This document shows positions 13,651-26,989 of a stretch of DNA of 64,000 bases, piece after piece (position 1 is the first letter of the stretch; each line of letters begins with the position of its first letter). This DNA comes from a virus: positions 62,001 through 126,000 of IMG/VR virus record IMGVR_UViG_3300023199_000051; one strand, given 5' to 3'. The notes beneath the pieces are model-generated. The model searched no databases, was not told the origin of the DNA, and saw only the letters and a list, made by a program, of their open reading frames with translations. Both the position numbers and the translations under genes were made by a program.

Positions 13651-14244
13651 CTAGGCAGCGCCTACGAACTGCTGCCAGTCTTCGGGGAGCCCTTGCTTCT
13701 GCAGGATGATGCGCAAGCTCTCGCGCGCATTTGGCTGTGACGGTCGCTGGGGCAGGAAGCCGGCCTCTTCAGGTGTCTTGTCTCCCTTGGCGTGGTTGCA
13801 CGGCTTGCAGGCCGTCACCACGTTGTCCCAGCCCGTGACCGGTACCTTGTGCCCACTCCACGGCAGCTTGACCAGCACGCGACGCTCAGTGCCGCGACGG
13901 ACCTCGAAGCTCCGCGAGCGCGGCACGACGTGGTCGAGGGTGAGCTTGTGGGTTGCTGGAGAGCCGTCACGCCGCAGGGGCCGGATCCCGCAGTACACGC
14001 AGGCGTACCGGTCGCGGGCGAAGACGTTGGCACGCTTGTAGCGCACCCGGCCACCATCGCTGACATACTCCTTGACGGCCACGACGCTGGGCCACGCCAT
14101 CTCGAAGTTTGCCGAGCGAATGACCTTGCCAGCTGCTTCGCAGATCACGTTGACCTTCTCGGCGAGGATCAGGCACACAGCCCGCTCCCACGACACGACG
14201 TGGAGCGGTGCGAAGTCGGCGTTGAGTACGAGTACGGAGTCCAT
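13651..14244 (-). CDS. HNH endonuclease
   Basis: 197 aa; ATG at 14244, just after the tRNA array. It matches the bacterial/phage HNH family that begins with a VLNADFAPLHVVSW-type segment. Catalytic region: CVYCG with the later CKPC forming a zinc knuckle, LDHVVPRSR as the core HNH His motif, WDNVVTACKPCNHAKGD as the NxxxxC..CN..K element. Such enzymes act as free-standing homing nucleases or packaging nicking enzymes; next to tRNAs a homing role is attractive, but no insertion target is visible. Family is well supported, role is not. Confidence 0.9.
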   Translation of the reverse strand: MDSVLVLNADFAPLHVVSWERAVCLILAEKVNVICEAAGKVIRSANFEMAWPSVVAVKEYVSDGGRVRYKRANVFARDRYACVYCGIRPLRRDGSPATHKLTLDHVVPRSRSFEVRRGTERRVLVKLPWSGHKVPVTGWDNVVTACKPCNHAKGDKTPEEAGFLPQRPSQPNARESLRIILQKQGLPEDWQQFVGAA

Positions 14245-14298: not shown

Positions 14299-14374
14299 TG
14301 GCGCCCTCGGCAGGGCTCGAACCTGCACCCGTCGGCTTAGGAGGCCGCCGCTCCTCCAGTTGAGCTTCGAGGGC
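14299..14374 (-). tRNA. tRNA-Arg (CCT)
   Basis: 7-bp acceptor GCCCTCG/CGAGGGC, T-loop TTCGAGC, anticodon loop CTCCTAA, encoded CCA. Last gene of the leftward array. Confidence 0.92.
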
Positions 14375-14378
14375 ATTG

Positions 14379-14455
14379 TGGAGCGCCCAGGGGGACTCGA
14401 ACCCGCCAACGCACGGCTTAGAACACCGGTGCTCATCCAGTTGAGCTTCAGGCGC
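14379..14455 (-). tRNA. tRNA-Arg (TCT)
   Basis: Acceptor GCGCCTG/TGGGCGC, T-loop TTCGAGT, anticodon loop GTTCTAA, encoded CCA; reads AGA/AGG. Confidence 0.9.
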
Positions 14456-14460
14456 ATGTA

Positions 14461-14537
14461 TGGAGCTGCCGGCGGGAGTCGAACCCGCACCTCCAGGGAT
14501 GAAAACCCCGGCGACCTTCCAGTGGTTCCACGGCAGC
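14461..14537 (-). tRNA. tRNA-Glu (TTC)
   Basis: Acceptor GCTGCCG/CGGCAGC, anticodon loop TTTTCAT, T-loop TTCGACT, encoded CCA. Confidence 0.9.
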
Positions 14538-14543
14538 GTGAAG

Positions 14544-14618
14544 TGGTGCGCAGACAGGGACTCGAACCCTGGACAGCCCCCATGTAAAGGGGGATCCTCA
14601 CCGTTCGGACTTCTGCGC
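14544..14618 (-). tRNA. tRNA-Val (TAC)
   Basis: Acceptor GCGCAGA/TCTGCGC, anticodon stem CCCCC/GGGGG with loop TTTACAT, encoded CCA. Confidence 0.92.
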
Positions 14619-14621
14619 AGA

Positions 14622-14697
14622 TGGTGGAGCCAGTGAGAATCGAACTCACCACAGCTTGCTTGCAAGGCAGGCTCGCCCCCTTGGAACATGTGACCCC
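14622..14697 (-). tRNA. tRNA-Ala (TGC)
   Basis: Acceptor GGGGTCA/TGGCTCC, anticodon loop CTTGCAA, T-stem GTGAG/CTCAC, encoded CCA. Confidence 0.9.
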
Positions 14698-14704
14698 ATC
14701 GCAG

Positions 14705-14780
14705 TGGAGTGGGTGACGGGAGTCGAACCCGCCTGGGCCGGCTTGGAAGGCCGGTACCTCACCATCGAGGAGACACCCAC
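14705..14780 (-). tRNA. tRNA-Gly (TCC)
   Basis: Acceptor GTGGGTG/CACCCAC, anticodon stem CCGGC/GCCGG with loop CTTCCAA, encoded CCA. Confidence 0.92.
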
Positions 14781-14782
14781 AT

Positions 14783-14831
14783 TGGAAGGTTCGAAGACAG
14801 CCTCTTCGACGGACACTCTGGCTACCCTTCC
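14783..14831 (-). pseudogene. Possible tRNA remnant
   Basis: A 49-nt piece between two tRNA genes has terminal arms GGAAGG/CCTTCC, an internal hairpin (TCGAAGA/TCTTCGA) and a T-loop-like TTCGAAC, but no room for D and anticodon arms. It may be a decayed tRNA or just a processing hairpin. Confidence 0.25.
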
Positions 14832-14841
14832 TCTCGCCATC

Positions 14842-14909
14842 TGGAGCCCCGCCGGACATCGAAGTCCGCATGGCGGGATACAACGCCGCACTAGGCGCCT
14901 GCACGGGGC
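14842..14909 (-). tRNA. Atypical tRNA, possibly Tyr (GTA)
   Basis: 68 nt with encoded CCA. Acceptor GCCCCGT/GCGGGGC and T-stem CGGAC/GTCCG pair well, but the T-loop is 6 nt (TTCGAT), positions 8-9 are absent, the D-stem is 3 bp, and the anticodon arm has 4 bp (GGCG/CGCC) with an 8-nt loop TTGTATCC. If U33 is the second T the anticodon is GTA. No standard Tyr tRNA exists in the array, so this may fill the gap, or it may be degenerate. Confidence 0.5.
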
Positions 14910-14910
14910 A

Positions 14911-14988
14911 TGGTGTGAGGAGGTGGGACTTGAACCCACAGCGCACCTCTTCAGCGAGGCTGCCCCTCCCTGCTGGCACCCTCCTCAC
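14911..14988 (-). tRNA. Atypical tRNA with 8-bp acceptor stem, identity unclear
   Basis: 78 nt with encoded CCA. All stems pair: 8-bp acceptor GTGAGGAG/CTCCTCAC, D-stem TGCC/GGCA, anticodon stem GCCTC/GAGGT, T-stem GTGGG/CCCAC with loop TTCAAGT. The anticodon loop has only 6 nt (GCTGAA) and base 26 is missing. An 8+5 acceptor-T branch is typical of tRNA-Sec and allo-tRNAs, but there is no UCA anticodon or long variable arm. GAA after T33 would be Phe; unresolved. Confidence 0.55.
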
Positions 14989-14997
14989 ATTGATAGG

Positions 14998-15073
14998 TGG
15001 CTGGGGCGGCGGGAATCGAACCCGCGGTGACCGGGACCAAAATCCGGTGCCTTACCGACTTGGCTACACCCCA
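14998..15073 (-). tRNA. tRNA-Gln (TTG)
   Basis: Acceptor TGGGGTG/CGCCCCA, anticodon stem CCGGA/CCCGG with loop TTTTGGT, encoded CCA; close to the bacterial Gln consensus. Confidence 0.92.
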
Positions 15074-15077
15074 GCAA

Positions 15078-15148
15078 TGGAGGCGGCGCCCGGAGTCGAA
15101 CCGGGACGGCTGAGGTTGCAACCCAGCCTCCGGCCGCCGGTCACCGCC
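15078..15148 (-). tRNA. tRNA-Cys (GCA)
   Basis: 71 nt. Acceptor GGCGGTG/CGCCGCC, anticodon stem CTGGG/CTCAG with loop TTGCAAC, encoded CCA. Confidence 0.9.
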
Positions 15149-15155
15149 CATCAAG

Positions 15156-15231
15156 TGGCTGCCCCTTCAGGGATCGAACCTGAGTCTCTCGGTTCAGAGC
15201 CGAGTATCCATGCCAGCTGGACCAAGGGGCA
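15156..15231 (-). tRNA. tRNA-Gln (CTG)
   Basis: Acceptor TGCCCCT/AGGGGCA, anticodon stem CTCGG/CCGAG with loop CTCTGAA, encoded CCA. Confidence 0.92.
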
Positions 15232-15234
15232 ATG

Positions 15235-15310
15235 TGGTTGAGGCCCTGGGAGTTGAACCCAGCACGCTGCACTTATCAGGCGCGGCAGAGCTACCGGCAT
15301 CTCGACCTCA
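15235..15310 (-). tRNA. tRNA-Ile (GAT)
   Basis: Acceptor TGAGGTC/GGCCTCA, anticodon loop CTGATAA, T-loop TTCAACT, encoded CCA. Confidence 0.88.
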
Positions 15311-15311
15311 A

Positions 15312-15389
15312 TGGCGCCTCGTCTGGGACTCGAACCCAGCACCTCTCGATTAACAGTCGAGCGCTTCGAACCAGTTGAGCTTCCGAGGC
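15312..15389 (-). tRNA. tRNA-Asn (GTT)
   Basis: Acceptor GCCTCGG/ACGAGGC, anticodon stem CTCGA/TCGAG with loop CTGTTAA, encoded CCA. Confidence 0.92.
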
Positions 15390-15393
15390 AAGA

Positions 15394-15468
15394 TGGTACT
15401 GCCGGCGGGATTCGAACCCGCACCTCCCCGGCTGAGAACCGAGTGACCTTCCTGTAGTCGACGGCAGC
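15394..15468 (-). tRNA. tRNA-Glu (CTC)
   Basis: Acceptor GCTGCCG/CGGCAGT, anticodon loop TTCTCAG, T-loop TTCGAAT, encoded CCA. The next 77 nt (15469-15545) hold no recognisable tRNA. Confidence 0.9.
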
Positions 15469-15545
15469 GTGTGGACGAGGCAGTTTTTGCAGCCGGCTAC
15501 TGCCCCCGACGACACGTCCCGTGCCGGGTCTTCTGCAGACCAAGA

Positions 15546-15620
15546 TGGTAGCGCGGGTTGGAGTTGAACCAACGAACTGAGGGGTATGAACCCTCCGTGC
15601 GACCGTCGCACCGCCGCGCA
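15546..15620 (-). tRNA. tRNA-Met (CAT), initiator-like
   Basis: Anticodon stem GAGGG/CCCTC gives the three stacked G:C pairs typical of initiator tRNA, loop TTCATAC, and bases 1 and 72 do not pair (T/T), also an initiator trait. The T11:A24 pair is elongator-like. Encoded CCA. Confidence 0.85.
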
Positions 15621-15626
15621 TCAAAG

Positions 15627-15702
15627 TGGTCGGGGTAGCAGGAGTCGAACCTACCGCTTCTTGCTCCCAAAGCAAGCGTCGCACCAACGCGACTCTACCC
15701 CG
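15627..15702 (-). tRNA. tRNA-Pro (TGG)
   Basis: Acceptor CGGGGTA/TACCCCG, anticodon stem CTTGC/GCAAG with loop TTTGGGA, encoded CCA. Confidence 0.92.
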
Positions 15703-15709
15703 AGTGAGG

Positions 15710-15787
15710 TGGCGGGAATGACGGGGCTCGAACCCGCTGACTCCGACGTGACAGGCCGGTGCATCGTCCAACTTCTGCTCCATCCCC
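15710..15787 (-). tRNA. tRNA-Asp (GTC)
   Basis: Acceptor GGGGATG/CATTCCC, anticodon loop CTGTCAC, encoded CCA. Confidence 0.9.
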
Positions 15788-15788
15788 A

Positions 15789-15866
15789 TGGGGTGAATGA
15801 CGGGTCTCGAACCCGCTACCTCGCGGCCCACAACCGCACGCTTCGACCACTTCAGCCTCATCCACC
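15789..15866 (-). tRNA. tRNA-His (GTG)
   Basis: Carries the His-specific extra 5' G (G-1) opposite C73; acceptor GTGGATG/CATTCAC, anticodon loop TTGTGGG, encoded CCA. Confidence 0.92.
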
Positions 15867-15867
15867 A

Positions 15868-15943
15868 TGGCACCCTCAGCGGGGATCGAACCCGCAACCT
15901 CTGCCTTCGGAGGGCAGCGCTCATCCTGTTGAGCTTCGAGGGT
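15868..15943 (-). tRNA. tRNA-Arg (CCG)
   Basis: Acceptor ACCCTCG/TGAGGGT, anticodon stem CTGCC/GGCAG with loop CTCCGAA, encoded CCA. A perfect 8-bp hairpin (GAGAGGGC/GCCCTCTC) sits at 15947-15968 before it. Confidence 0.92.
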
Positions 15944-16003
15944 GCAGAGAGGGCTGGTAGGCCCTCTCGCAGACCATACGTATGCACGATGTCAAAGAAG
16001 AAA

Positions 16004-16079
16004 TGGCTGGGGTGGTGGGACTCGAACCCACAGCCGCTCGATTCGTAGTCGAGTGCTCATCCAGTTGAGCTTCACCCCA
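16004..16079 (-). tRNA. tRNA-Arg (ACG)
   Basis: Acceptor TGGGGTG/CACCCCA, anticodon stem CTCGA/TCGAG with loop CTACGAA, encoded CCA; needs A34-to-I editing to read CGN. First tRNA of block 2. Confidence 0.92.
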
Positions 16080-16104
16080 TCAGGTGGACCGTAGCCCACA
16101 AACG

Positions 16105-16142
16105 ACGAAGCCCCCGAGGCCGTGAGGCGCCGGGGGCTTCGT
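16105..16142 (-). terminator. GC-rich hairpin ahead of tRNA block 2
   Basis: 12-bp arms ACGAAGCCCCCG and CGGGGGCTTCGT around a 14-nt loop. On the minus strand it is followed by TCGTTTG, a poor U-tract. It lies between the promoter at 16322-16350 and the first tRNA of block 2, so it could end a short leader RNA, act as an attenuator or be a processing site. A near copy lies at 17014-17053. Confidence 0.5.
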
Positions 16143-16315
16143 TGAGGCTGTGTCTGTTCGACGGCTACCTCATGCCACCCCCGGCTGCGGGCTCGTTCGG
16201 GATCTGATGATCCGCGACTCGCCGCACCACGCATGTACCCGTACCTTCGGGCCTGGCGGCTCGCTGGGATCTGGGGGTGGTTGGGAAGGTGAGCATGGAA
16301 GGTGTACCTCTGTCT
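16143..16315 (-). ncRNA. Candidate leader or small RNA before tRNA block 2
   Basis: No gene is visible between tRNA blocks. A sigma70-like promoter (16322-16350, minus) would start RNA near 16315, and the strong hairpin at 16105-16142 could end it, giving a transcript of about 210 nt. The equivalent arrangement occurs before block 1. Whether it is a stable RNA or only the pre-tRNA leader cannot be told from sequence. Confidence 0.3.
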
Positions 16316-16321
16316 GCCTCA

Positions 16322-16350
16322 GGTCTACTGGACCTGGCCGCTGCCGTCAA
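16322..16350 (-). promoter_or_regulatory. Sigma70-like promoter for tRNA block 2
   Basis: Minus strand: TTGACG (16345-16350), 17-nt spacer, TAGACC (16322-16327). It faces the second tRNA block. Confidence 0.5.
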
Positions 16351-16363
16351 GAAAAAGGTGAAA

Positions 16364-16452
16364 TGGAGGAGAGTAGAGGAGTCGAACCCCCACGCGCGGA
16401 GCGCACCCCCAGCTTTCGAGGCTGGTCGCCGGCCTTCCCAGCGGTACTCTCC
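16364..16452 (-). tRNA. tRNA-Ser (CGA)
   Basis: 89 nt with long variable arm. Acceptor GGAGAGT/ACTCTCC, anticodon stem CCAGC/GCTGG with loop CTCGAAA, encoded CCA. Last gene of block 1. Confidence 0.92.
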
Positions 16453-16455
16453 AGG

Positions 16456-16544
16456 TGGAGGAGAGAGGCGGAATCGAACCGCACGGCTTGTCACCGCGCA
16501 CCGGGTAGCAACCGGCCCCCCGCACCAGCTAGGGGTCTCTCTCC
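16456..16544 (-). tRNA. tRNA-Ser (GCT)
   Basis: 89 nt with long variable arm. Acceptor GGAGAGA/TCTCTCC, anticodon loop TTGCTAC, encoded CCA. Confidence 0.9.
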
Positions 16545-16550
16545 ATGAAG

Positions 16551-16626
16551 TGGCAGGCGCGGTGGGACTCGAACCCACAGCCGGCGGGTTTGGAATCCGC
16601 TGCTCGGCCAGTTGAGCTTCACGCCT
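16551..16626 (-). tRNA. tRNA-Trp (CCA)
   Basis: Acceptor AGGCGTG/CGCGCCT, anticodon loop TTCCAAA, discriminator G, encoded CCA. Confidence 0.9.
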
Positions 16627-16631
16627 TCAAG

Positions 16632-16718
16632 TGGTGCTCGGGGCGGGGGTCGAACCCGCACGGGATTGCTCCCACCAGGGCCTAAACCTGGCGCGTCTTC
16701 CGCTTCCGCCACCCGAGC
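16632..16718 (-). tRNA. tRNA-Leu (TAG)
   Basis: 87 nt with long variable arm. Acceptor GCTCGGG/CCCGAGC, anticodon stem CCAGG/CCTGG with loop TTTAGGC, encoded CCA. Confidence 0.92.
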
Positions 16719-16723
16719 AAGGG

Positions 16724-16799
16724 TGGTGGGCTGTCTGGGGATCGAACCCAGCGCCTCCAGATTAAGAGTCTGGTGCATCGCCAATGATGCTTACAGCCC
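16724..16799 (-). tRNA. tRNA-Lys (CTT)
   Basis: Acceptor GGGCTGT/ACAGCCC, anticodon stem CCAGA/TCTGG with loop CTCTTAA, encoded CCA. Confidence 0.92.
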
Positions 16800-16804
16800 G
16801 CAAG

Positions 16805-16880
16805 TGGTGGCACCGGTAGGAATCGAACCCACGTCTCCTGGTCTTCAGCCAGGCGCTTGAACCGTCTCAGCTACGGTGCC
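16805..16880 (-). tRNA. tRNA-Phe (GAA)
   Basis: Acceptor GGCACCG/CGGTGCC, anticodon stem CCTGG/CCAGG with loop CTGAAGA, encoded CCA. Confidence 0.92.
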
Positions 16881-16881
16881 A

Positions 16882-16970
16882 TGGTGGTCCTGGTGGGAGT
16901 CGAACCCACACGAGGGTTGCCCCTCACCGGAGCTTGAAACCGGCGCGTACTCCTGTTTCGCCACAGGACC
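16882..16970 (-). tRNA. tRNA-Leu (CAA)
   Basis: 89 nt with long variable arm. Acceptor GGTCCTG/CAGGACC, anticodon loop TTCAAGC, encoded CCA. First tRNA of the array. Confidence 0.9.
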
Positions 16971-19435: not shown

Positions 19436-22400
19436 CTACACCCCCGACGCTGGCGCTTCGCGCACTTCTTGCTTGAGCTTGCTGCGCCGCTTCATCTCCG
19501 TGAAGGCCGAGCCAAGCGCAAGATCCCGCCTGCTGTATGAAAACCAGCGACGTGCGAGGCTGGTGAGCCTGTTGCTGTCTTGAGTCTGAGACAGAGGCCG
19601 CAGGGTAAGATCTCGACTATCGACGCCGAAGGTGTCGATGGCGCGTGCCCGATCACGTCGGAGGGCTTCGGTGATGCTCCCCCAGCGGTCGGCCGGCACG
19701 ACCAGCTCGAAGTCCTGTTCGAGGAGATCCTTGAGCTGCAACAAGCCCCTCTCGCCTGCGGCACGTTGCGTGTCCCTCACGATGCGTCTCAGCTGGGACC
19801 CGCTCAACAGCACGAGCAGGTCATCCGCTCTGCGCCGCAGAGGGAGGAAACCGATGTAGCTGCTGACGAGCGCACCGACGATTCGCGTGGTGACACCGAA
19901 GCCTTTGATGTTTCTGAAGGCGTTGCGCAGGATGGCCGGCCACAGATCAGGGCCGAGCCGGTCCACCACGACCTTGCTCATGGCTGGTACCTGTGGCCCG
20001 CGCATGATCTCGCCGTTGCCAAGGATGGCCTGTCTCTCCTCGGCATCGTCCCATCCGCCGCATACTTCAAGAGGTACCTTCTCGACGTGGCCCTCCATCC
20101 CCGTCTTCGTGGAGCCGATCAGAGCTGACGGGTGCTTGGCGTGCTCGACCATGGCCGAACCGTACTTTCGGTACGAGAAGAAGGTCCCCTTCGGGTCCAC
20201 CTTCAGCACCTCTACGCGCTTCGGGTTGCTGTGGAGTGCGCCATCCACAGAGCTGGTGCTGCGCAAGCACACCCGGTCGCCAGCACGGAGGATCATGCCC
20301 GTCTTGAAGTTGAAGTAGATGGCGGTCTTCTTGACCTCTTCGAGGACCGTTGCCATCCGGGGCCAGATGTCCTCACCGTACGTCTTCTCGATGGTGGCTG
20401 CGTCGCGATCTGCGGACTCCAGCCGCGCTTCGTAGAGAGCGGTGTCATCGGCCCGCTTGGCAGCGCGGGCCTCGTGGTACTTCTCAGCGAGCCGAACGAA
20501 GGCGCGGCGTGCCCGCTTACGGCGCTTGATCTTGAGGCGTTCGGCCTTCGTCTCCCTGTACTCCTCGACCTTGATGCGTGCTTCGCTCTCATCGGAGGCG
20601 AAGATCCAAATCAGCAGCTCCATGCGGTCGACCCGCATGCCCGCTGCCGGGTTGTTCATCTCGGTCACCGAGTCATCCCACAGAGACTCCATCCAGCCCT
20701 GCTTGCCCATGACCATGTTGAGCTTGAAGCCATCGAAGCTCTTGGAGGTGATGTAGTACCAGACGTTGACGAGCTGGTAGCTGTTGCCCTGGCGCACCCC
20801 GCGTCCGTTGCGCTGCTGGATGGTGGCTGCCTCCCAGGGGAGCGTCATGTGGTGAATGGCGCAGGTCCGTGCCTGCAGGTTCAGCCCCTCGGCCATCGCA
20901 CCGCTGGTGCCGATCACGACGTCGTACTTGGGCTCCAGCGCTTCTTGGATGACTGCGCCAGTCTGCTCGTCGATGATGGCTGATCGGCCGTTGAAGCCGT
21001 CTGCGATGACCAAGCGCTCCCCCTTCGACTGCTCCCCTGTGATGAAGGCGATGCGATCTCGGGGGATGCGCGTGTTGGCGACAATGGCGTCGACCATCCA
21101 CTCGTGCGTGTCCGTGTAGTCACTGAAGATGATGTGGCCGCAGGCCGGGTTGACCAGGATCTTCTCGACCAGTGCCATGTACTTTGGAGGGTACGTCCCC
21201 TTGGCGGCGTACTTGGCAGCAATGCGCCCAATGCCCACCTCGGTGAGGATGTCGAGCTTGGTCTGCAGGCTCGCCATCTTCTCACTCGACAGCCCCTTCT
21301 TGGACGGTCGCCTCTTCCGCTTCCCTTCCTGGTAGTCATCCCACTGCTGGTTGATCTTGCGGGCTTTGGCCAGGACCTCCTGCGTCTTGTAGATGTCCTC
21401 CCGCAACAGGCGCACGTCGAAGGCAGACTTCGATAGCATGTCCATCTGCCTGAGGATGATGCCGCCGACCTGAGCCGATTCACCCGCTCCCTGTGCTCGT
21501 TCCTTCTCCTCTGCGAGGAGGTCCTTGATGACTTCTTTGACTGTGTCCACGACGTGGCGCTGCTCGTCGTCCATGTCCACCACAACCTGCACGTTGCCTG
21601 TGTTGCCCACACGGGGGACCTTCTGGGCGAAGACCTCCATGCCGGGGTCGTTGGTGAGCTTGCGGTCGGTGTGAGCGAGGATGATGTCGCGAAGCTCATC
21701 GAGGTGCAGGAACTCGGTGACAGCCAGCTGATCGACAACCTCGTTGGTGGCCGGGTCACCAGATGGCTCGACCTCAAGTCCGCAGTACCGATCGATGAAC
21801 TCTTCGGCGTTGCGCACGCGGCGCTGGCTCCAGACGTTCCTGGAGACCAGTGACATCAGGTTGTAGACCTCCAGTGGGCTGTTCTTCAGCGGCGTTGCGG
21901 TCAGCAGGCACACACCGGAGTCATCGTGGTTGCCGAGCAGGTACTGGCACTTGAGGAACATGTCCCAGGCGCGGATGGTGATGCCCGAGCCAGAGCCCAT
22001 GAACTCGATCTTGTCCTCACCGACGCGCCGCTCGGCGAACCACAGGTTCTTGAAGTTGTGTGCTTCGTCGACCACCAAGAAATCGCACCGCAGCTCTTCC
22101 CAGGTGATCATCGGAGGTACAGGCACAGGCCCGTCGTAGTCCGGCGGTGGGAAGCGCTCTTCCAGGACCGCGACGATCTCCTTCTTCTTCATCTTGCGCG
22201 GCTTGCCGGTCGACGTCGTCTCGGTCGGGTGATGCTCCAGGTCGAGTCCCTTCCGCTTGGCAAAGGCGATCAGCTCGGCCTTGCGCTGGCTCTTCGACCA
22301 CTCCCGAGGCGGCTTGCGTCGTGGCCGGAAGGGCTTGGTCTCCCTGACGTTCTCCAAGTCCTGACGCACCTGCTCGATGATGTTGTCCGACGGCGCCTTC

Positions 22401-25400
22401 AGATCCTCACTCCACCCCTTGATCTGGCGTTCAAGATCCTTGATCTTCTTGTCTAGCTTCTTGATGTCTGGGTGATCCTCGTCGAGGTAGCGGATGTCCT
22501 CTTGCCTCTCCTCTCGACGCTCGGCAAGCTCCTCCTGAGCGTTGTCGATGCGCCGTTGTGTCAGCCTGCGGTCTGCCGCTTCGAGTCCGAGCTTGTACTG
22601 GAACCAGAAGACCTGGCTTAGGATGTCGTGGATGGAGCTGTCCTCCATGGCCACGTCGTCGAGGAAGTTGCTGTAGGGGACCATCAAGAGGTCGTAGTCC
22701 CCCTGTGCAAAGCGGTTCCACTTCACGCGCCGCTCATCAGCTGTGTCGTCTCGTGGCGCTCCAGACGTGGAGGGTGTGATGCCGATGACGCCGATACGGT
22801 AGTCTGGCAGCAGCTTGCGCGCTTCGCTGTACCAGGTAGGCAGCACGCTGTTCGGAGACACGATGATGGGCCGCTGCACCTTGCCGTCCTGCCGGAGCTT
22901 CGCAGCTGCGGCCAGAGCCGTAAACGTGTTGTGCAGGATGAGGCCGCCCGCACCTCCGACATAGTTCTTGTCGTCGTAGGCGCCTGCATCAACTTCGATG
23001 TCGTAGACAAAGCCTCCCACCTGCCCCTGCTCTACGGACGCAACACGCTCGAAGCAGAACCCGGAGTCGACTAGCGCTTCAAGGCGGTTTGCGGCATCAA
23101 GCAGACGATCCCCGCAGAGCACCAGCGACTCATGTGTCTGCTGGTTGCGCCAGTTGCTCGATGCTGCGTACCGCGCAATCCCAAGCTCGGAGGCTTCCGC
23201 CCGCCACTGCTGCACGAGACCCTGCGCGCGTTCCACCGAGATCGTCTCGACTCCGGCCTTGGGTACATTGCCGTGACCGTAGAGCCAGGCACGCCGGAAT
23301 CCGGCCTCCAGCAGCTCGTCCACCAGATCGCGGATGGGGATCCCCACGTTCGGGTTTCGGGTCTTTGACACCAGCTTGCCGAGGGCAGCCTGCTTGTAGT
23401 CGACGCCGAAGCCGACGTGCTTGTGGAAAGCTACGGCGTCCTCACCACTGAACGTGATCCGCCAGTAGTCGTTGTGTTCGTAGCCCTTGACCCGCTTGTA
23501 CTTCAGCGACGATCGGACGCCGAAGCGCAGCAGCATGTACTGTACCTGCTCCAGCAGCAAGCGTGATGCAGACAGCACCTCAACGACATCACCCGTGCAG
23601 GACCCCTCAGCGTCGAAGAAGGCACGAGTCAGCGTTGCGAGCAGATCGTCAGGGAGCAGAGGCAGCCAGGGAGGCAGCTCACGGCCCGCGGAGAGCACTC
23701 CCCACTTGAAGCCCAGGGCTTCCGCCTCCTGCCGGTATGCCTTGGAGCTGATCTCCAGGTAGGGCACGTACTTTCCGTCAGCGGGCGTGCGGATGTGACC
23801 CGAGGTGGAGTCGGGGTAGCACCGCCGGAAGCGAGCTTGCAGGTCTTCCAGGAGTCCGGGCAAGAGCTTCTGCGTGATGGTCGTTGTGTGGCTCGTCTGG
23901 ACGCTCGGGCTTGCTTCGCGGTCGTGCCCCTCCGCAACCTGCCAGACCATCAGGAGGGCCAGATCTTCAAGCCGCTGCGGGTCGAGGTGCGCTACCTGGG
24001 CCGGAAGAGCGGGAGGGGGTGTCAGCCGCTTGGGCACCGCCAACCAGTCTCCCGCTTCGATCTCCCCGGTCGGCACCCACGTGACACAGCCATCACGTAC
24101 GACAGGCAGCGGGTGGGCGCTGGTGGGCTCTACGCGGCATCCGCGGGTGGTCTCCAGGACACGCAGAGCCTCGTGATCCGAGATGCGCTGTCGGTATAGA
24201 CGACGCACGGGGCGCCAGGAGGCGGCACCGTCTTGCCCGTGCGCAAGCACCTTCAAATCAGCAGGAGGTAGGAGCACCAGCTCATCCTCTGGCCCTTCCA
24301 GGTGGTCTCCGAATAGGGAGCCGATGGTGACCAGGCCCGTGTTGCAGGCGAGGAGTGTGTCCTTCTCGACGCACTTGCCCAGACCGACATCGAATGCAAG
24401 GATTCCACCCCGCTTATCTGCGACCATACGAGCTCCAGAGTTCTGGTGGGGGTGCAGTATGTAGGTAGGTGCCATCCGCGCGATGTCAATTGGGCTGTCA
24501 TCGTACTCGGGGGGCACGAAACCCCGGTAGAGCCGGTTGTAGCGATCTTCGACCAACTGCCGCCACTCCAGCTGCCCCGCGAGCCAGGAGGCGAACGCCG
24601 TCTCCAGCTCCTGATCAGCCTGCATCCTTGCTTCCATGTCGGCCGTCTCGTAGCGCCTCGTCTTCTTCGGGGCTGTCTCGTCCGGGTCCGTCATCTCCAG
24701 CTGGCGGTTGTAGTAGCCCAGGAAGAAGAGCAGCCACTTGTGCTGCAGCGCCTCCCCTCTGCGGCCTCGGTCGAGGGAGTCGTTCGTCCTTGCACGCAGC
24801 ACGCCGCTCTCTTCGAACAGCTCGATGTTGGGGTGGCCACCCAACTCCTCCTGGAGCGTGTCATTGACGAAGTCTTGGAGTAGCTGGTACGGCTTAGCCG
24901 CATCGTCAAAGACGAGGTAGCCGGCCCGGATGTTCGGGTCGATATCCGACAGCGTCTTCGGATCGATCGTGGTGAGCAGCGCCTTCTTCTGCGCTTCCAG
25001 CTTCTGCCGCACATCGAAGGCCACCTCGCCGGCCAGCAGCGCGTTGACGGCATCGAGGCGCTTGTAGAGGGCGCCTGTGAGGTACTGCTCCAATCGGTAG
25101 TAGCTGTATGAGCCATCGGACTGCAGCTCGATCGCCACATCCGACCTTGCCACTAGCACCTCGAACGCCCCTACCGCCGAGTGGTGGCGCTCCAGATCCT
25201 TCTCGGTGCACACGCCGTTGTGCTTGCTGTACCAGGTAACGATCTCGGTGACGGGAGATCCCGCATGGGGAGCGTTAGACTCTCGCACGGCCAGCTTCTG
25301 CGTGAGCATGGGTACAAGCTGCCCCGCCTTGCTGACGGCTGCGAGCAGCGGAGCGACCATGTCCCGGTACCCGATCAGCTCCTCGATGTCATGCGGGTTG

Positions 25401-26989
25401 CCGTGTTGCCCGAGGAACTGTTCGATGTCGGCCCGCAGCTCTTGCCGCCCCGCTTCAGCCTTGTCGGGGTTGGAGACCGCTACAGCCCGGAAGCGCCCCA
25501 GTCGCACGGCCAGCGCAGCTGCCTGCTGCACGACACCCGCGCCAGCGCTTCCGATCTGGACAAGCGCACGCTGTGCAGCACGCTGCACGTCTTGTGGTGT
25601 GATGGACGGGTCCGGCTCGTCGGGGAGGTCGACGGGTGCGGGGACCGGGGTGAGGGTTGTGTCTTCTGCCTCTTCTTCTGGTGTACTCTCTCGCCACTCC
25701 CGGATGGCATGGAACATGCCCTCGGTCAGCGGCCTGTCCACCATGTTCGCAACACGTTGCGGATCGAACAGCCCCTTGAGGATCGGACCATAGCGCCCCT
25801 TACCCCAGTGGCCCATGATGTTCTTCTGCCCGTCTTCCATCTCCAGGTAGTCACCTGCAATGATGCGCCGATCCTCCACGGTCAGCGACCGCTTGTAGGT
25901 GTCGGGGAGTCTCACCCAGGCATGGATGACGAAGTTGACCGTGGAGACGTTCGGGAAGACCGACTGCGGCACCAGCACACCGCCGGCAAAGTGGCACTTG
26001 TCGAAGAGGTGCTTGCGCATCTTGACGTGCTCGCGGTCCTCGCCTGTGACCTGGCCCATGGGCGTGATGGTGACCATGACGCCGCCGGGGGACAGCATGT
26101 CGGCACATCGCGCAGTGAAGTAGTTGTCGGGCTTGCGCCACTGCTTCCCGCCTGGGTCCTGCTTGCGGTGCTGCGCTGGACGTTCTTTGCCGTAGGGTGG
26201 GTTGGTGAGGATGAGATCGAAGCTGCGGCCCTCCTTCGAGGCCCGCGATGCGAATGCCTCGAACTCGGAGGGAAACACCTGTGCATTGCTGTACATGGCT
26301 TGCAGGAACTGGACGAGGAGCTTGTCATTCTCAACGGCTGTCCAGGCCACCCCCTCATCAACAGGGGTCGTGCGCATGAAGCGTCCGATGCCGGCCGCAG
26401 GTTCCAGCGCTGTCTGCAGCTTCACTGGAGCGATCTTCCGTGCAAGCGCCCACATGGCCCGGCACACATTCAGGCCCGTGAAATACTGGTTGGCAAGCCC
26501 GTAGAAGAGGTTGGTGGTGGGGACCTCCCACCCCTCCTCGCCAGGGGCGAGCTGCCGAGCGCGTCGGAACTGCGCAATCCCTTCTACGTACTCGGGGGAG
26601 AAGAGCACAGGGTCCTCGGGGAGCAGGCTGACCTTGATCCCGCCCCACCCGCTGAACGCCATGATGGACGCTCGCTCTTCTGGCGTGGGGACACTGCGTT
26701 GGGCCCCTTGCATCTGACGCAGTGCTCGTAGGGCACTGAGGTTGGCCTTGCGGCGCTTCGGCTCGGACCAGGCTTCGTAGTCTTCTCCTGGTGGTGGCGG
26801 CTCCAAGGGCCCCGTGTCAACAGGCAGCAGTCCCGCCACTTCCTGGAAGAGAGCCAGGCCGGTGTCGTAGTCCTTCCGCAGGTAGGCCGCGTATTCGTTG
26901 GCAGTCAACCCAGGTGCGACGTACTGATCCAGCTGCCCCAGCCAGGCAATGAAGTCATCGAATTGCTGGCGTGCGTCGACATCGGCCAC
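19436..26989 (-). CDS. DarB-like N6-adenine methyltransferase-SNF2 helicase fusion, intein-containing precursor
   Basis: 2517 aa precursor, about 2035 after splicing; GTG start behind AGGAGG. N-terminal FSGWGGI and LEPAAGIGRF (SAM-binding motif I, about residue 194), then NPPYG (262) mark an N6-adenine methyltransferase. The helicase has P-loop DVGLGK-T (interrupted by the intein after residue 872), DEAH (about 1638), TATPLKNS (about 1695) and QRNGRGVRQG (about 2060). The architecture matches phage P1 DarB and large plasmid methylase-helicases; DarB is packaged in P1 heads and shields incoming DNA from type I restriction. Here it sits downstream of the putative structural operon, which fits a virion-carried anti-restriction role (inference). 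Confidence 0.92.
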   Translation of the reverse strand: MADVDARQQFDDFIAWLGQLDQYVAPGLTANEYAAYLRKDYDTGLALFQEVAGLLPVDTGPLEPPPPGEDYEAWSEPKRRKANLSALRALRQMQGAQRSVPTPEERASIMAFSGWGGIKVSLLPEDPVLFSPEYVEGIAQFRRARQLAPGEEGWEVPTTNLFYGLANQYFTGLNVCRAMWALARKIAPVKLQTALEPAAGIGRFMRTTPVDEGVAWTAVENDKLLVQFLQAMYSNAQVFPSEFEAFASRASKEGRSFDLILTNPPYGKERPAQHRKQDPGGKQWRKPDNYFTARCADMLSPGGVMVTITPMGQVTGEDREHVKMRKHLFDKCHFAGGVLVPQSVFPNVSTVNFVIHAWVRLPDTYKRSLTVEDRRIIAGDYLEMEDGQKNIMGHWGKGRYGPILKGLFDPQRVANMVDRPLTEGMFHAIREWRESTPEEEAEDTTLTPVPAPVDLPDEPDPSITPQDVQRAAQRALVQIGSAGAGVVQQAAALAVRLGRFRAVAVSNPDKAEAGRQELRADIEQFLGQHGNPHDIEELIGYRDMVAPLLAAVSKAGQLVPMLTQKLAVRESNAPHAGSPVTEIVTWYSKHNGVCTEKDLERHHSAVGAFEVLVARSDVAIELQSDGSYSYYRLEQYLTGALYKRLDAVNALLAGEVAFDVRQKLEAQKKALLTTIDPKTLSDIDPNIRAGYLVFDDAAKPYQLLQDFVNDTLQEELGGHPNIELFEESGVLRARTNDSLDRGRRGEALQHKWLLFFLGYYNRQLEMTDPDETAPKKTRRYETADMEARMQADQELETAFASWLAGQLEWRQLVEDRYNRLYRGFVPPEYDDSPIDIARMAPTYILHPHQNSGARMVADKRGGILAFDVGLGKCVEKDTLLACNTGLVTIGSLFGDHLEGPEDELVLLPPADLKVLAHGQDGAASWRPVRRLYRQRISDHEALRVLETTRGCRVEPTSAHPLPVVRDGCVTWVPTGEIEAGDWLAVPKRLTPPPALPAQVAHLDPQRLEDLALLMVWQVAEGHDREASPSVQTSHTTTITQKLLPGLLEDLQARFRRCYPDSTSGHIRTPADGKYVPYLEISSKAYRQEAEALGFKWGVLSAGRELPPWLPLLPDDLLATLTRAFFDAEGSCTGDVVEVLSASRLLLEQVQYMLLRFGVRSSLKYKRVKGYEHNDYWRITFSGEDAVAFHKHVGFGVDYKQAALGKLVSKTRNPNVGIPIRDLVDELLEAGFRRAWLYGHGNVPKAGVETISVERAQGLVQQWRAEASELGIARYAASSNWRNQQTHESLVLCGDRLLDAANRLEALVDSGFCFERVASVEQGQVGGFVYDIEVDAGAYDDKNYVGGAGGLILHNTFTALAAAAKLRQDGKVQRPIIVSPNSVLPTWYSEARKLLPDYRIGVIGITPSTSGAPRDDTADERRVKWNRFAQGDYDLLMVPYSNFLDDVAMEDSSIHDILSQVFWFQYKLGLEAADRRLTQRRIDNAQEELAERREERQEDIRYLDEDHPDIKKLDKKIKDLERQIKGWSEDLKAPSDNIIEQVRQDLENVRETKPFRPRRKPPREWSKSQRKAELIAFAKRKGLDLEHHPTETTSTGKPRKMKKKEIVAVLEERFPPPDYDGPVPVPPMITWEELRCDFLVVDEAHNFKNLWFAERRVGEDKIEFMGSGSGITIRAWDMFLKCQYLLGNHDDSGVCLLTATPLKNSPLEVYNLMSLVSRNVWSQRRVRNAEEFIDRYCGLEVEPSGDPATNEVVDQLAVTEFLHLDELRDIILAHTDRKLTNDPGMEVFAQKVPRVGNTGNVQVVVDMDDEQRHVVDTVKEVIKDLLAEEKERAQGAGESAQVGGIILRQMDMLSKSAFDVRLLREDIYKTQEVLAKARKINQQWDDYQEGKRKRRPSKKGLSSEKMASLQTKLDILTEVGIGRIAAKYAAKGTYPPKYMALVEKILVNPACGHIIFSDYTDTHEWMVDAIVANTRIPRDRIAFITGEQSKGERLVIADGFNGRSAIIDEQTGAVIQEALEPKYDVVIGTSGAMAEGLNLQARTCAIHHMTLPWEAATIQQRNGRGVRQGNSYQLVNVWYYITSKSFDGFKLNMVMGKQGWMESLWDDSVTEMNNPAAGMRVDRMELLIWIFASDESEARIKVEEYRETKAERLKIKRRKRARRAFVRLAEKYHEARAAKRADDTALYEARLESADRDAATIEKTYGEDIWPRMATVLEEVKKTAIYFNFKTGMILRAGDRVCLRSTSSVDGALHSNPKRVEVLKVDPKGTFFSYRKYGSAMVEHAKHPSALIGSTKTGMEGHVEKVPLEVCGGWDDAEERQAILGNGEIMRGPQVPAMSKVVVDRLGPDLWPAILRNAFRNIKGFGVTTRIVGALVSSYIGFLPLRRRADDLLVLLSGSQLRRIVRDTQRAAGERGLLQLKDLLEQDFELVVPADRWGSITEALRRDRARAIDTFGVDSRDLTLRPLSQTQDSNRLTSLARRWFSYSRRDLALGSAFTEMKRRSKLKQEVREAPASGV
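22928..24373 (-). mobile_element. Intein with LAGLIDADG-type homing endonuclease in the helicase P-loop
   Basis: 482 residues (873-1354 of the precursor). It starts with Cys (CVEKDTLLACNTG) right after GLGK and ends in LILHN, followed by Thr as +1 nucleophile, restoring DVGLGK-TFTALAA. The C-terminal block VYDIEVDAG...NYVGGAGG is typical Hint. An internal DDLLATLTRAFFDAEGS (about intein residues 240-256) is a LAGLIDADG dodecapeptide. Splicing and, perhaps, homing appear intact. Confidence 0.93.

What the first reader, a model, noticed from the sequence alone, without database searches (positions are those of the whole stretch)
14781..14990. Two structurally atypical tRNAs and a possible remnant side by side
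Between Gly (TCC) and Gln (TTG), one 68-nt gene has an 8-nt anticodon loop (possible GTA), 6-nt T-loop and missing positions 8-9; its neighbour has an 8-bp acceptor, 5-bp T-stem, no base 26 and a 6-nt anticodon loop. Both keep well-paired stems and an encoded CCA, so they do not look randomly decayed. A third, 49-nt tRNA-like piece precedes them. The 8+5 branch recalls tRNA-Sec and allo-tRNAs.
Basis: partly seen in the sequence, partly recalled or inferred. Interest (0 to 1): 0.72.

Follow-up and report, generated by a model that had tools for sequence, protein, structure and literature searches.

The report
Two odd phage tRNA genes
Inside a row of 27 tRNA genes carried by an uncultured phage sit two genes that fold like tRNAs but have abnormal proportions; they are probably divergent phage tRNAs in an array whose tRNAs have, as a whole, lost a normally near-universal structural core, and they are not selenocysteine tRNAs or allo-tRNAs.

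Summary
Both odd cloverleafs are in the sequence. B (minus strand, 14988-14911) has an 8-bp acceptor, 5-bp T stem and 6-nt anticodon loop, with 22/22 stem pairs; no shuffle of the gap matched its score (0/400, maximum 46 against 59). A (14909-14842) is weaker (7/400 shuffles match). Both end in encoded CCA and tile into a 27-gene array with the usual 1-9 nt spacers. The third piece is only a hairpin. No relative of A or B was found among roughly 75 phage arrays (about 1,250 cloverleafs), so they cannot be dated or tested by covariation. B fails tRNA-Sec and allo-tRNA membership: short variable loop, no UCA, 13 bp rather than 12. The context is more unusual than the pair. Across the array the U8-A14-A21 core triple is intact in 2/21 tRNAs, against 296/462 in 23 other phage arrays. 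An HNH gene directly downstream has homologues beside similarly relaxed arrays in Myxococcota genomes and another phage. The nearby tRNA-Ala belongs to a conserved non-canonical family found in about 60 viral loci. Best reading: divergent, structure-retaining phage tRNA genes; B is unlikely to decode normally and A is probably degrading. Function is unproven.

The parts
14911..14988 (-). Element B: atypical tRNA-like gene, acceptor 8 / D 4-10 / anticodon 5-6 / V 5 / T 5-7, encoded CCA
   Evidence: Cloverleaf scan score 59, 0/400 shuffles; 22/22 pairs; sub-threshold Rfam tRNA-Sec 25.8 bits
14842..14909 (-). Element A: short atypical tRNA-like gene, acceptor 7, no 8-9, D 3-9, anticodon 4-8 (UUGUAUCC, possible GUA), V 3, T 5-6, encoded CCA
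   Evidence: Cloverleaf scan score 41, 7/400 shuffles; 19/19 pairs
14784..14832 (-).
   Evidence: z -1.12, 25/200 shuffles fold as well
14299..16970 (-). Array of 27 tRNA cloverleafs, all with encoded CCA, most spacers 1-9 nt; the only tRNAs found in the 178-kb record
14622..14697 (-). Non-canonical tRNA-Ala(UGC), member of a conserved phage family with fixed D region AUGUNCCAAGGGGGCGA and G3:U70
   Evidence: 57 distinct sequences aligned with covarying stems; 60 IMG/VR copies; Rfam 21.4 bits, cut-off 29
15078..15148 (-). Odd tRNA-Cys (71 nt, reduced D arm, 6-nt anticodon loop in the best fit), related to tRNA-Cys of Myxococcota contig L124
   Evidence: 78% over 60 nt to L124
13654..14244 (-). 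HNH endonuclease gene directly downstream of the array
   Evidence: Pfam HNH; 42-45% identity to the gene directly downstream of the array in L124; homologues within arrays of L121 and L289 and between tRNA genes of Myxococcus phage Mx1

Best explanation
A and B are members of one polycistronic phage tRNA array, not stray sequence. They are tRNA genes that have diverged in proportions while keeping their helices, the elbow signals (GG in the D loop, UUC in the T loop) and an encoded CCA. Inferred mechanism: the operon is transcribed whole during infection and cut into tRNAs by host enzymes, supplying a phage-owned tRNA pool. In this array the D-arm core has become dispensable. B (13-bp acceptor-T branch, 6-nt loop with no normal U33-anchored triplet) is probably made and processed but does not read codons in the usual way; A (8-nt loop carrying GUA) is probably a tRNA on its way out. 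Shown: structure, position, CCA, excess over chance for B, the array-wide core loss, and linkage to an HNH gene. Inferred: transcription, processing, charging and any function.
For: B exceeds all 400 shuffles of the gap, A all but 7. Both tile the array at spacings of 9 and 1 nt with CCA, as in 27/27 genes. Core relaxation in the rest of the array: U8 8/21, A21 2/21, full triple 2/21, against 390/462, 334/462 and 296/462 in 23 other phage arrays, while UUC and U33 are 21/21. Structurally odd neighbours have relatives elsewhere and so are not mere decay products: tRNA-Ala family with covariation, tRNA-Cys shared with L124. The phage genes read with the standard code.
Against: No homologue of A or B among roughly 75 phage arrays (about 1,250 cloverleafs) or by pattern scans, so nothing shows they are maintained by selection. 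A is only marginally above chance. B's most stable fold is not the cloverleaf. A young pseudogene would also still have paired stems. No expression data.
Confidence: 0.5

Rival explanations
1. Plain pseudogenes: two tRNA genes hit by a few recent indels in a fast-turnover phage array, still mostly paired because the damage is young.
For: Phage arrays contain annotated pseudo-tRNAs (phage ET08). A's departures are mostly losses or loop changes. Neither has relatives. tRNA-Tyr and tRNA-Thr are missing from the canonical set, and A carries a Tyr-type GUA.
Against: B's acceptor is longer on both strands and still paired, which random indels rarely give; all 22 stem positions pair; no shuffle reaches its score.
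Confidence: 0.33
2. Nuclease-resistant or decoy tRNAs: abnormal anticodon loops and core make them poor substrates for, or traps of, host tRNA-targeting defence enzymes.
For: Phage tRNAs are proposed to escape anticodon nucleases through loop mutations (PMC10264068). Both elements have non-standard loop sizes, and the whole array departs from the normal tRNA core.
Against: No host or nuclease is known here; no conservation of A or B; nearly all ordinary tRNAs of the array keep 7-nt loops.
Confidence: 0.1
3. A is a frameshift-suppressor-type tRNA reading a four-base codon with its 8-nt loop.
For: 8-nt loops occur in a few other phage-array tRNAs (3 of 547 and 6 of 709 cloverleafs in this fit); ARAGORN reads a four-base anticodon 'tatc' in one of them, in L070.
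Against: U rather than purine after GUA, 4-bp anticodon stem, 6-nt T loop and no 8-9 linker; score only marginally above chance. Programmed frameshift sites were not looked for.
Confidence: 0.05
4. B is a selenocysteine tRNA, allo-tRNA or selC*-type tRNA used for recoding.
For: 8+5 acceptor-T branch; sub-threshold tRNA-Sec match.
Against: Short variable loop, 4-bp D stem, no UCA; the type-II tRNA-Ser genes of the same array score higher with the tRNA-Sec model (40.6 and 41.5 bits).
Confidence: 0.02

Closest known systems
Phage and plasmid tRNA arrays (tRNA array units, e.g. mycobacteria and mycobacteriophages, PMC5966550)
   Same: Dense polycistronic tRNA cluster of most isotypes linked to an HNH endonuclease gene
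   Different: Array-wide loss of the U8-A14-A21 triple; two cloverleafs with non-standard proportions
Irregular tRNA-like polycistrons and allo-tRNAs from soil metagenomes and metatranscriptomes (Mukai 2017, as reviewed in PMC7609411)
   Same: tRNA-like genes with unusual acceptor branches, some in polycistrons, some not usable for translation in E. coli
   Different: Allo-tRNAs are 8/4 or 9/3 (12 bp) with longer variable arm and SerRS identity; B is 8/5 with a 5-nt variable loop
Bacterial tRNA-Sec
   Same: 8-bp acceptor and 5-bp T stem (13 bp)
   Different: No long variable arm, no UCA, D stem 4 bp
Phage tRNAs with anticodon-loop mutations that are predicted to evade nucleases (PMC10264068)
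   Same: Phage-encoded tRNAs with altered anticodon loops
   Different: Those are canonical tRNAs with altered loop bases; A and B change loop size and body

Membership tests
Bacterial tRNA-Sec | 13-bp acceptor-T branch as 8+5 | tested here: met
   B 8/5, all pairs formed
Bacterial tRNA-Sec | Long (class II) variable arm | tested here: not met
   Variable loop of 5 nt
Bacterial tRNA-Sec | UCA anticodon in the usual case | tested here: not met
   Loop GCUGAA
Bacterial tRNA-Sec | Rfam RF01852 gathering score | tested here: not met
   25.8 bits against 47
Allo-tRNA | 12-bp branch as 8/4 or 9/3 | tested here: not met
   B best fits 8/5; its minimum-energy fold pairs 9+4, also 13 bp
Allo-tRNA | Longer variable arm with SerRS identity | tested here: not met
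   5-nt variable loop; SerRS charging not testable here
Phage tRNA array member | Cloverleaf in series with other tRNAs, encoded CCA, short spacers | tested here: met
   27/27 CCA; spacers 9 and 1 nt on B's two sides
Phage tRNA array member | Cloverleaf beyond chance | tested here: met
   B 0/400 shuffles; A 7/400, marginal
Functional decoding tRNA | 7-nt anticodon loop with U33 | tested here: not met
   6 nt in B, 8 nt in A
Functional decoding tRNA | Transcription, processing and aminoacylation | not testable with these tools
   Needs RNA from infected cells

The most novel reading that the evidence does not exclude
This array belongs to a class of HNH-linked phage and bacterial tRNA arrays whose tRNAs have dispensed with the near-universal U8-A14-A21 core, and A and B are specialised non-decoding members of it (for example traps for tRNA-targeting defence enzymes) with a body plan not described before.
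Probability: 0.12. Interest if true: 0.82.

Novelty: new variant of a known kind. Interest (0 to 1): 0.52.

Why it matters
Standard tRNA finders overlook or discount such genes, so the structural range of phage tRNAs is underestimated. The array offers a natural test of how much of the tRNA body is needed for translation during infection, and of whether phages reshape tRNAs to escape tRNA-cutting defences. The accompanying non-canonical tRNA-Ala family, with covariation across 57 distinct sequences, shows that at least some overlooked phage tRNAs are under selection.

Tried and rejected
Searching for phage relatives with the RIIA-like protein and DNA polymerase in IMG/VR: none; a DarB-like alignment gave only distant loci. 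Pattern and BLAST searches for A and B in IMG/VR, phages and plasmids: nothing beyond T-arm matches or chance. Alternative genetic code: rejected, long frames and standard stops, 60 genes. Assembly indel error as the cause: unlikely, frames up to 3,057 aa are open, but reads were not available. Origin of B from a short-variable tRNA-Leu like L343: best library match 57/81, reached by 1/300 partial shuffles but not corrected for choice of hit; left open. Third piece as tRNA remnant: no support. HNH homologues in Myxococcota as markers of more arrays: 20 regions read, none with an array, so the gene is often present without tRNAs. The cloverleaf scorer is my own, not a calibrated tool; thresholds were set by shuffles only.

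Full report
What the window is. The window is bases 62001-126000 of a 178,164-base virus record, about 63% G+C, with no close relative in GenBank phages (helicase, DNA polymerase; best protein identities about 20-35%) or found in IMG/VR. It carries a single tRNA array on the minus strand, 16970 to 14299; ARAGORN finds no other tRNA in the record. My cloverleaf scan finds 27 cloverleafs there, two of them the elements of the finding.

The observation. B's 22 pairs and A's 19 pairs all form. In 400 dinucleotide shuffles of the 217-base gap the best cloverleaf averaged 31 and never exceeded 46; B scores 59, A 41 (7 of 400 reach 41). All 27 genes end in CCA, and B and A sit 9 and 1 bases from their upstream neighbours, like the 1-9 base spacers elsewhere in the array. 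The third piece is a hairpin in a longer spacer; it folds no better than shuffles, and other long spacers of the array also hold hairpins (sequence).

How rare they are. The same scan on 27 other array-bearing loci gave 547 cloverleafs and on 48 more loci 709. None combines an 8-bp acceptor and 5-bp T stem with a non-7 anticodon loop. Eight-base anticodon loops alone occur in a few (3; 6). These loci were found through tRNA patterns, so they are not a random sample of phages.

The array as a whole. In tRNAs of standard length the array keeps UUC in the T loop and U33 in 21/21 but has U8 in 8/21, A21 in 2/21 and the full U8-A14-A21 triple in 2/21. In 23 other phage arrays (462 distinct tRNAs) the figures are 390, 334 and 296 (Fisher p 4e-6, 7e-9 and 6e-7). 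Genes of one array are related, so these p-values overstate independence, but no control array of 8 or more tRNAs in that set falls below 0.70 for U8. A further set of 43 loci with at least 6 scorable tRNAs contains low-U8 arrays: L355 and L289 (0.17 and 0.22), then L291 and L329 (0.43), L121 (0.44), L310 and L124 (0.50). L121, L124 and L355 are contigs of Myxococcota genomes; L289 is another viral contig. An HNH homologue is next to or within the array in L124, L121 and L289; none was detected in the short contig L355. The tRNA order of L124 resembles part of the window's (Ser gct, Ser cga, Arg acg, Arg ccg, His, Asp ... Gly tcc ... Ala ... Glu ttc). The HNH gene is also common in Myxococcota away from tRNA genes, so it is not a specific marker. 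A myxobacterial host is possible but not shown.

Odd neighbours that are conserved. The window's tRNA-Ala (14697-14622) belongs to a family with an invariant D region AUGUNCCAAGGGGGCGA, invariant G3:U70 and covarying acceptor, anticodon and T stems in 57 distinct sequences. The search pattern fixed the D region, so its invariance is by construction; the stems and G3:U70 were not in the pattern. ARAGORN of 60 copies in IMG/VR loci; Rfam did not reach its cut-off at the four loci tested or in the window. I found no description of it in the papers searched, which is not proof of absence. tRNA-Cys is odd too and has a relative in L124.

What A and B most likely are. The simplest account is divergent tRNA genes inside a phage operon whose D-arm core is relaxed. 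For B, paired extension of the acceptor on both strands and a score above every shuffle argue that its RNA fold has been kept; its 6-base loop cannot present a normal anticodon, so ordinary decoding is unlikely. A is nearer the noise and may be decaying; its GUA would fit the missing tRNA-Tyr, but bacterial tRNA-Tyr has a long variable arm (general knowledge) and A has 3 bases there. Both are singletons in everything searched, so neither selection nor decay can be demonstrated. B's cloverleaf is also not its minimum-energy fold.

Comparison with known systems. Bacterial tRNA-Sec shares only the 8+5 branch; allo-tRNAs are 12-bp with a longer variable arm (PMC7609411). The same review reports irregular tRNA-like polycistrons in soil metatranscriptomes, the nearest precedent. 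HNH-linked tRNA arrays are known from mycobacteria and their phages (PMC5966550). Loop changes that may evade nucleases are proposed for phage tRNAs (PMC10264068), and a decoy or resistant role for B remains possible but untested.

Limits. The cloverleaf score and tRNA numbering are my own scripts; 21-24 array tRNAs could be numbered depending on the version. No reads, expression data or metagenome scan were available.

Noticed in passing
window 14622-14697 (-); IMG/VR loci L285-L350, L105; L124, L355: Non-canonical tRNA-Ala(UGC) family with D region AUGUNCCAAGGGGGCGA, G3:U70 and covarying stems; ARAGORN of 60 viral copies.
   Followed up: partly
window 14299-16970 (-): Array-wide loss of the U8-A14-A21 core triple (2/21 intact) with T loop and U33 fully kept.
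   Followed up: partly
window 13654-14244 (-); L124, L121, L289, L264 (phage Mx1): HNH endonuclease next to or within tRNA arrays in Myxococcota contigs and phages, also common in Myxococcota without tRNAs.
   Followed up: partly
L007:9490-14448 (G000 134490-139451): DNA polymerase gene with two inserted regions that look like inteins, one with a LAGLIDADG match.
   Followed up: no
window 19436-26989 (-): 2,517-aa DarB-like methylase-helicase; homology to a Bordetella phage protein breaks between residues about 874 and 1352 at a helicase motif, a possible intein.
   Followed up: no
library of arrays, e.g. L056, L057, L060, L120, L131: Many array tRNA-Leu genes have a short variable loop: 76 of 124 Leu calls are 79 nt or shorter.
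   Followed up: no
L069, L085, L107, L098: Array cloverleafs whose T loop reads GGCAGCA in place of UUCRANY.
   Followed up: no
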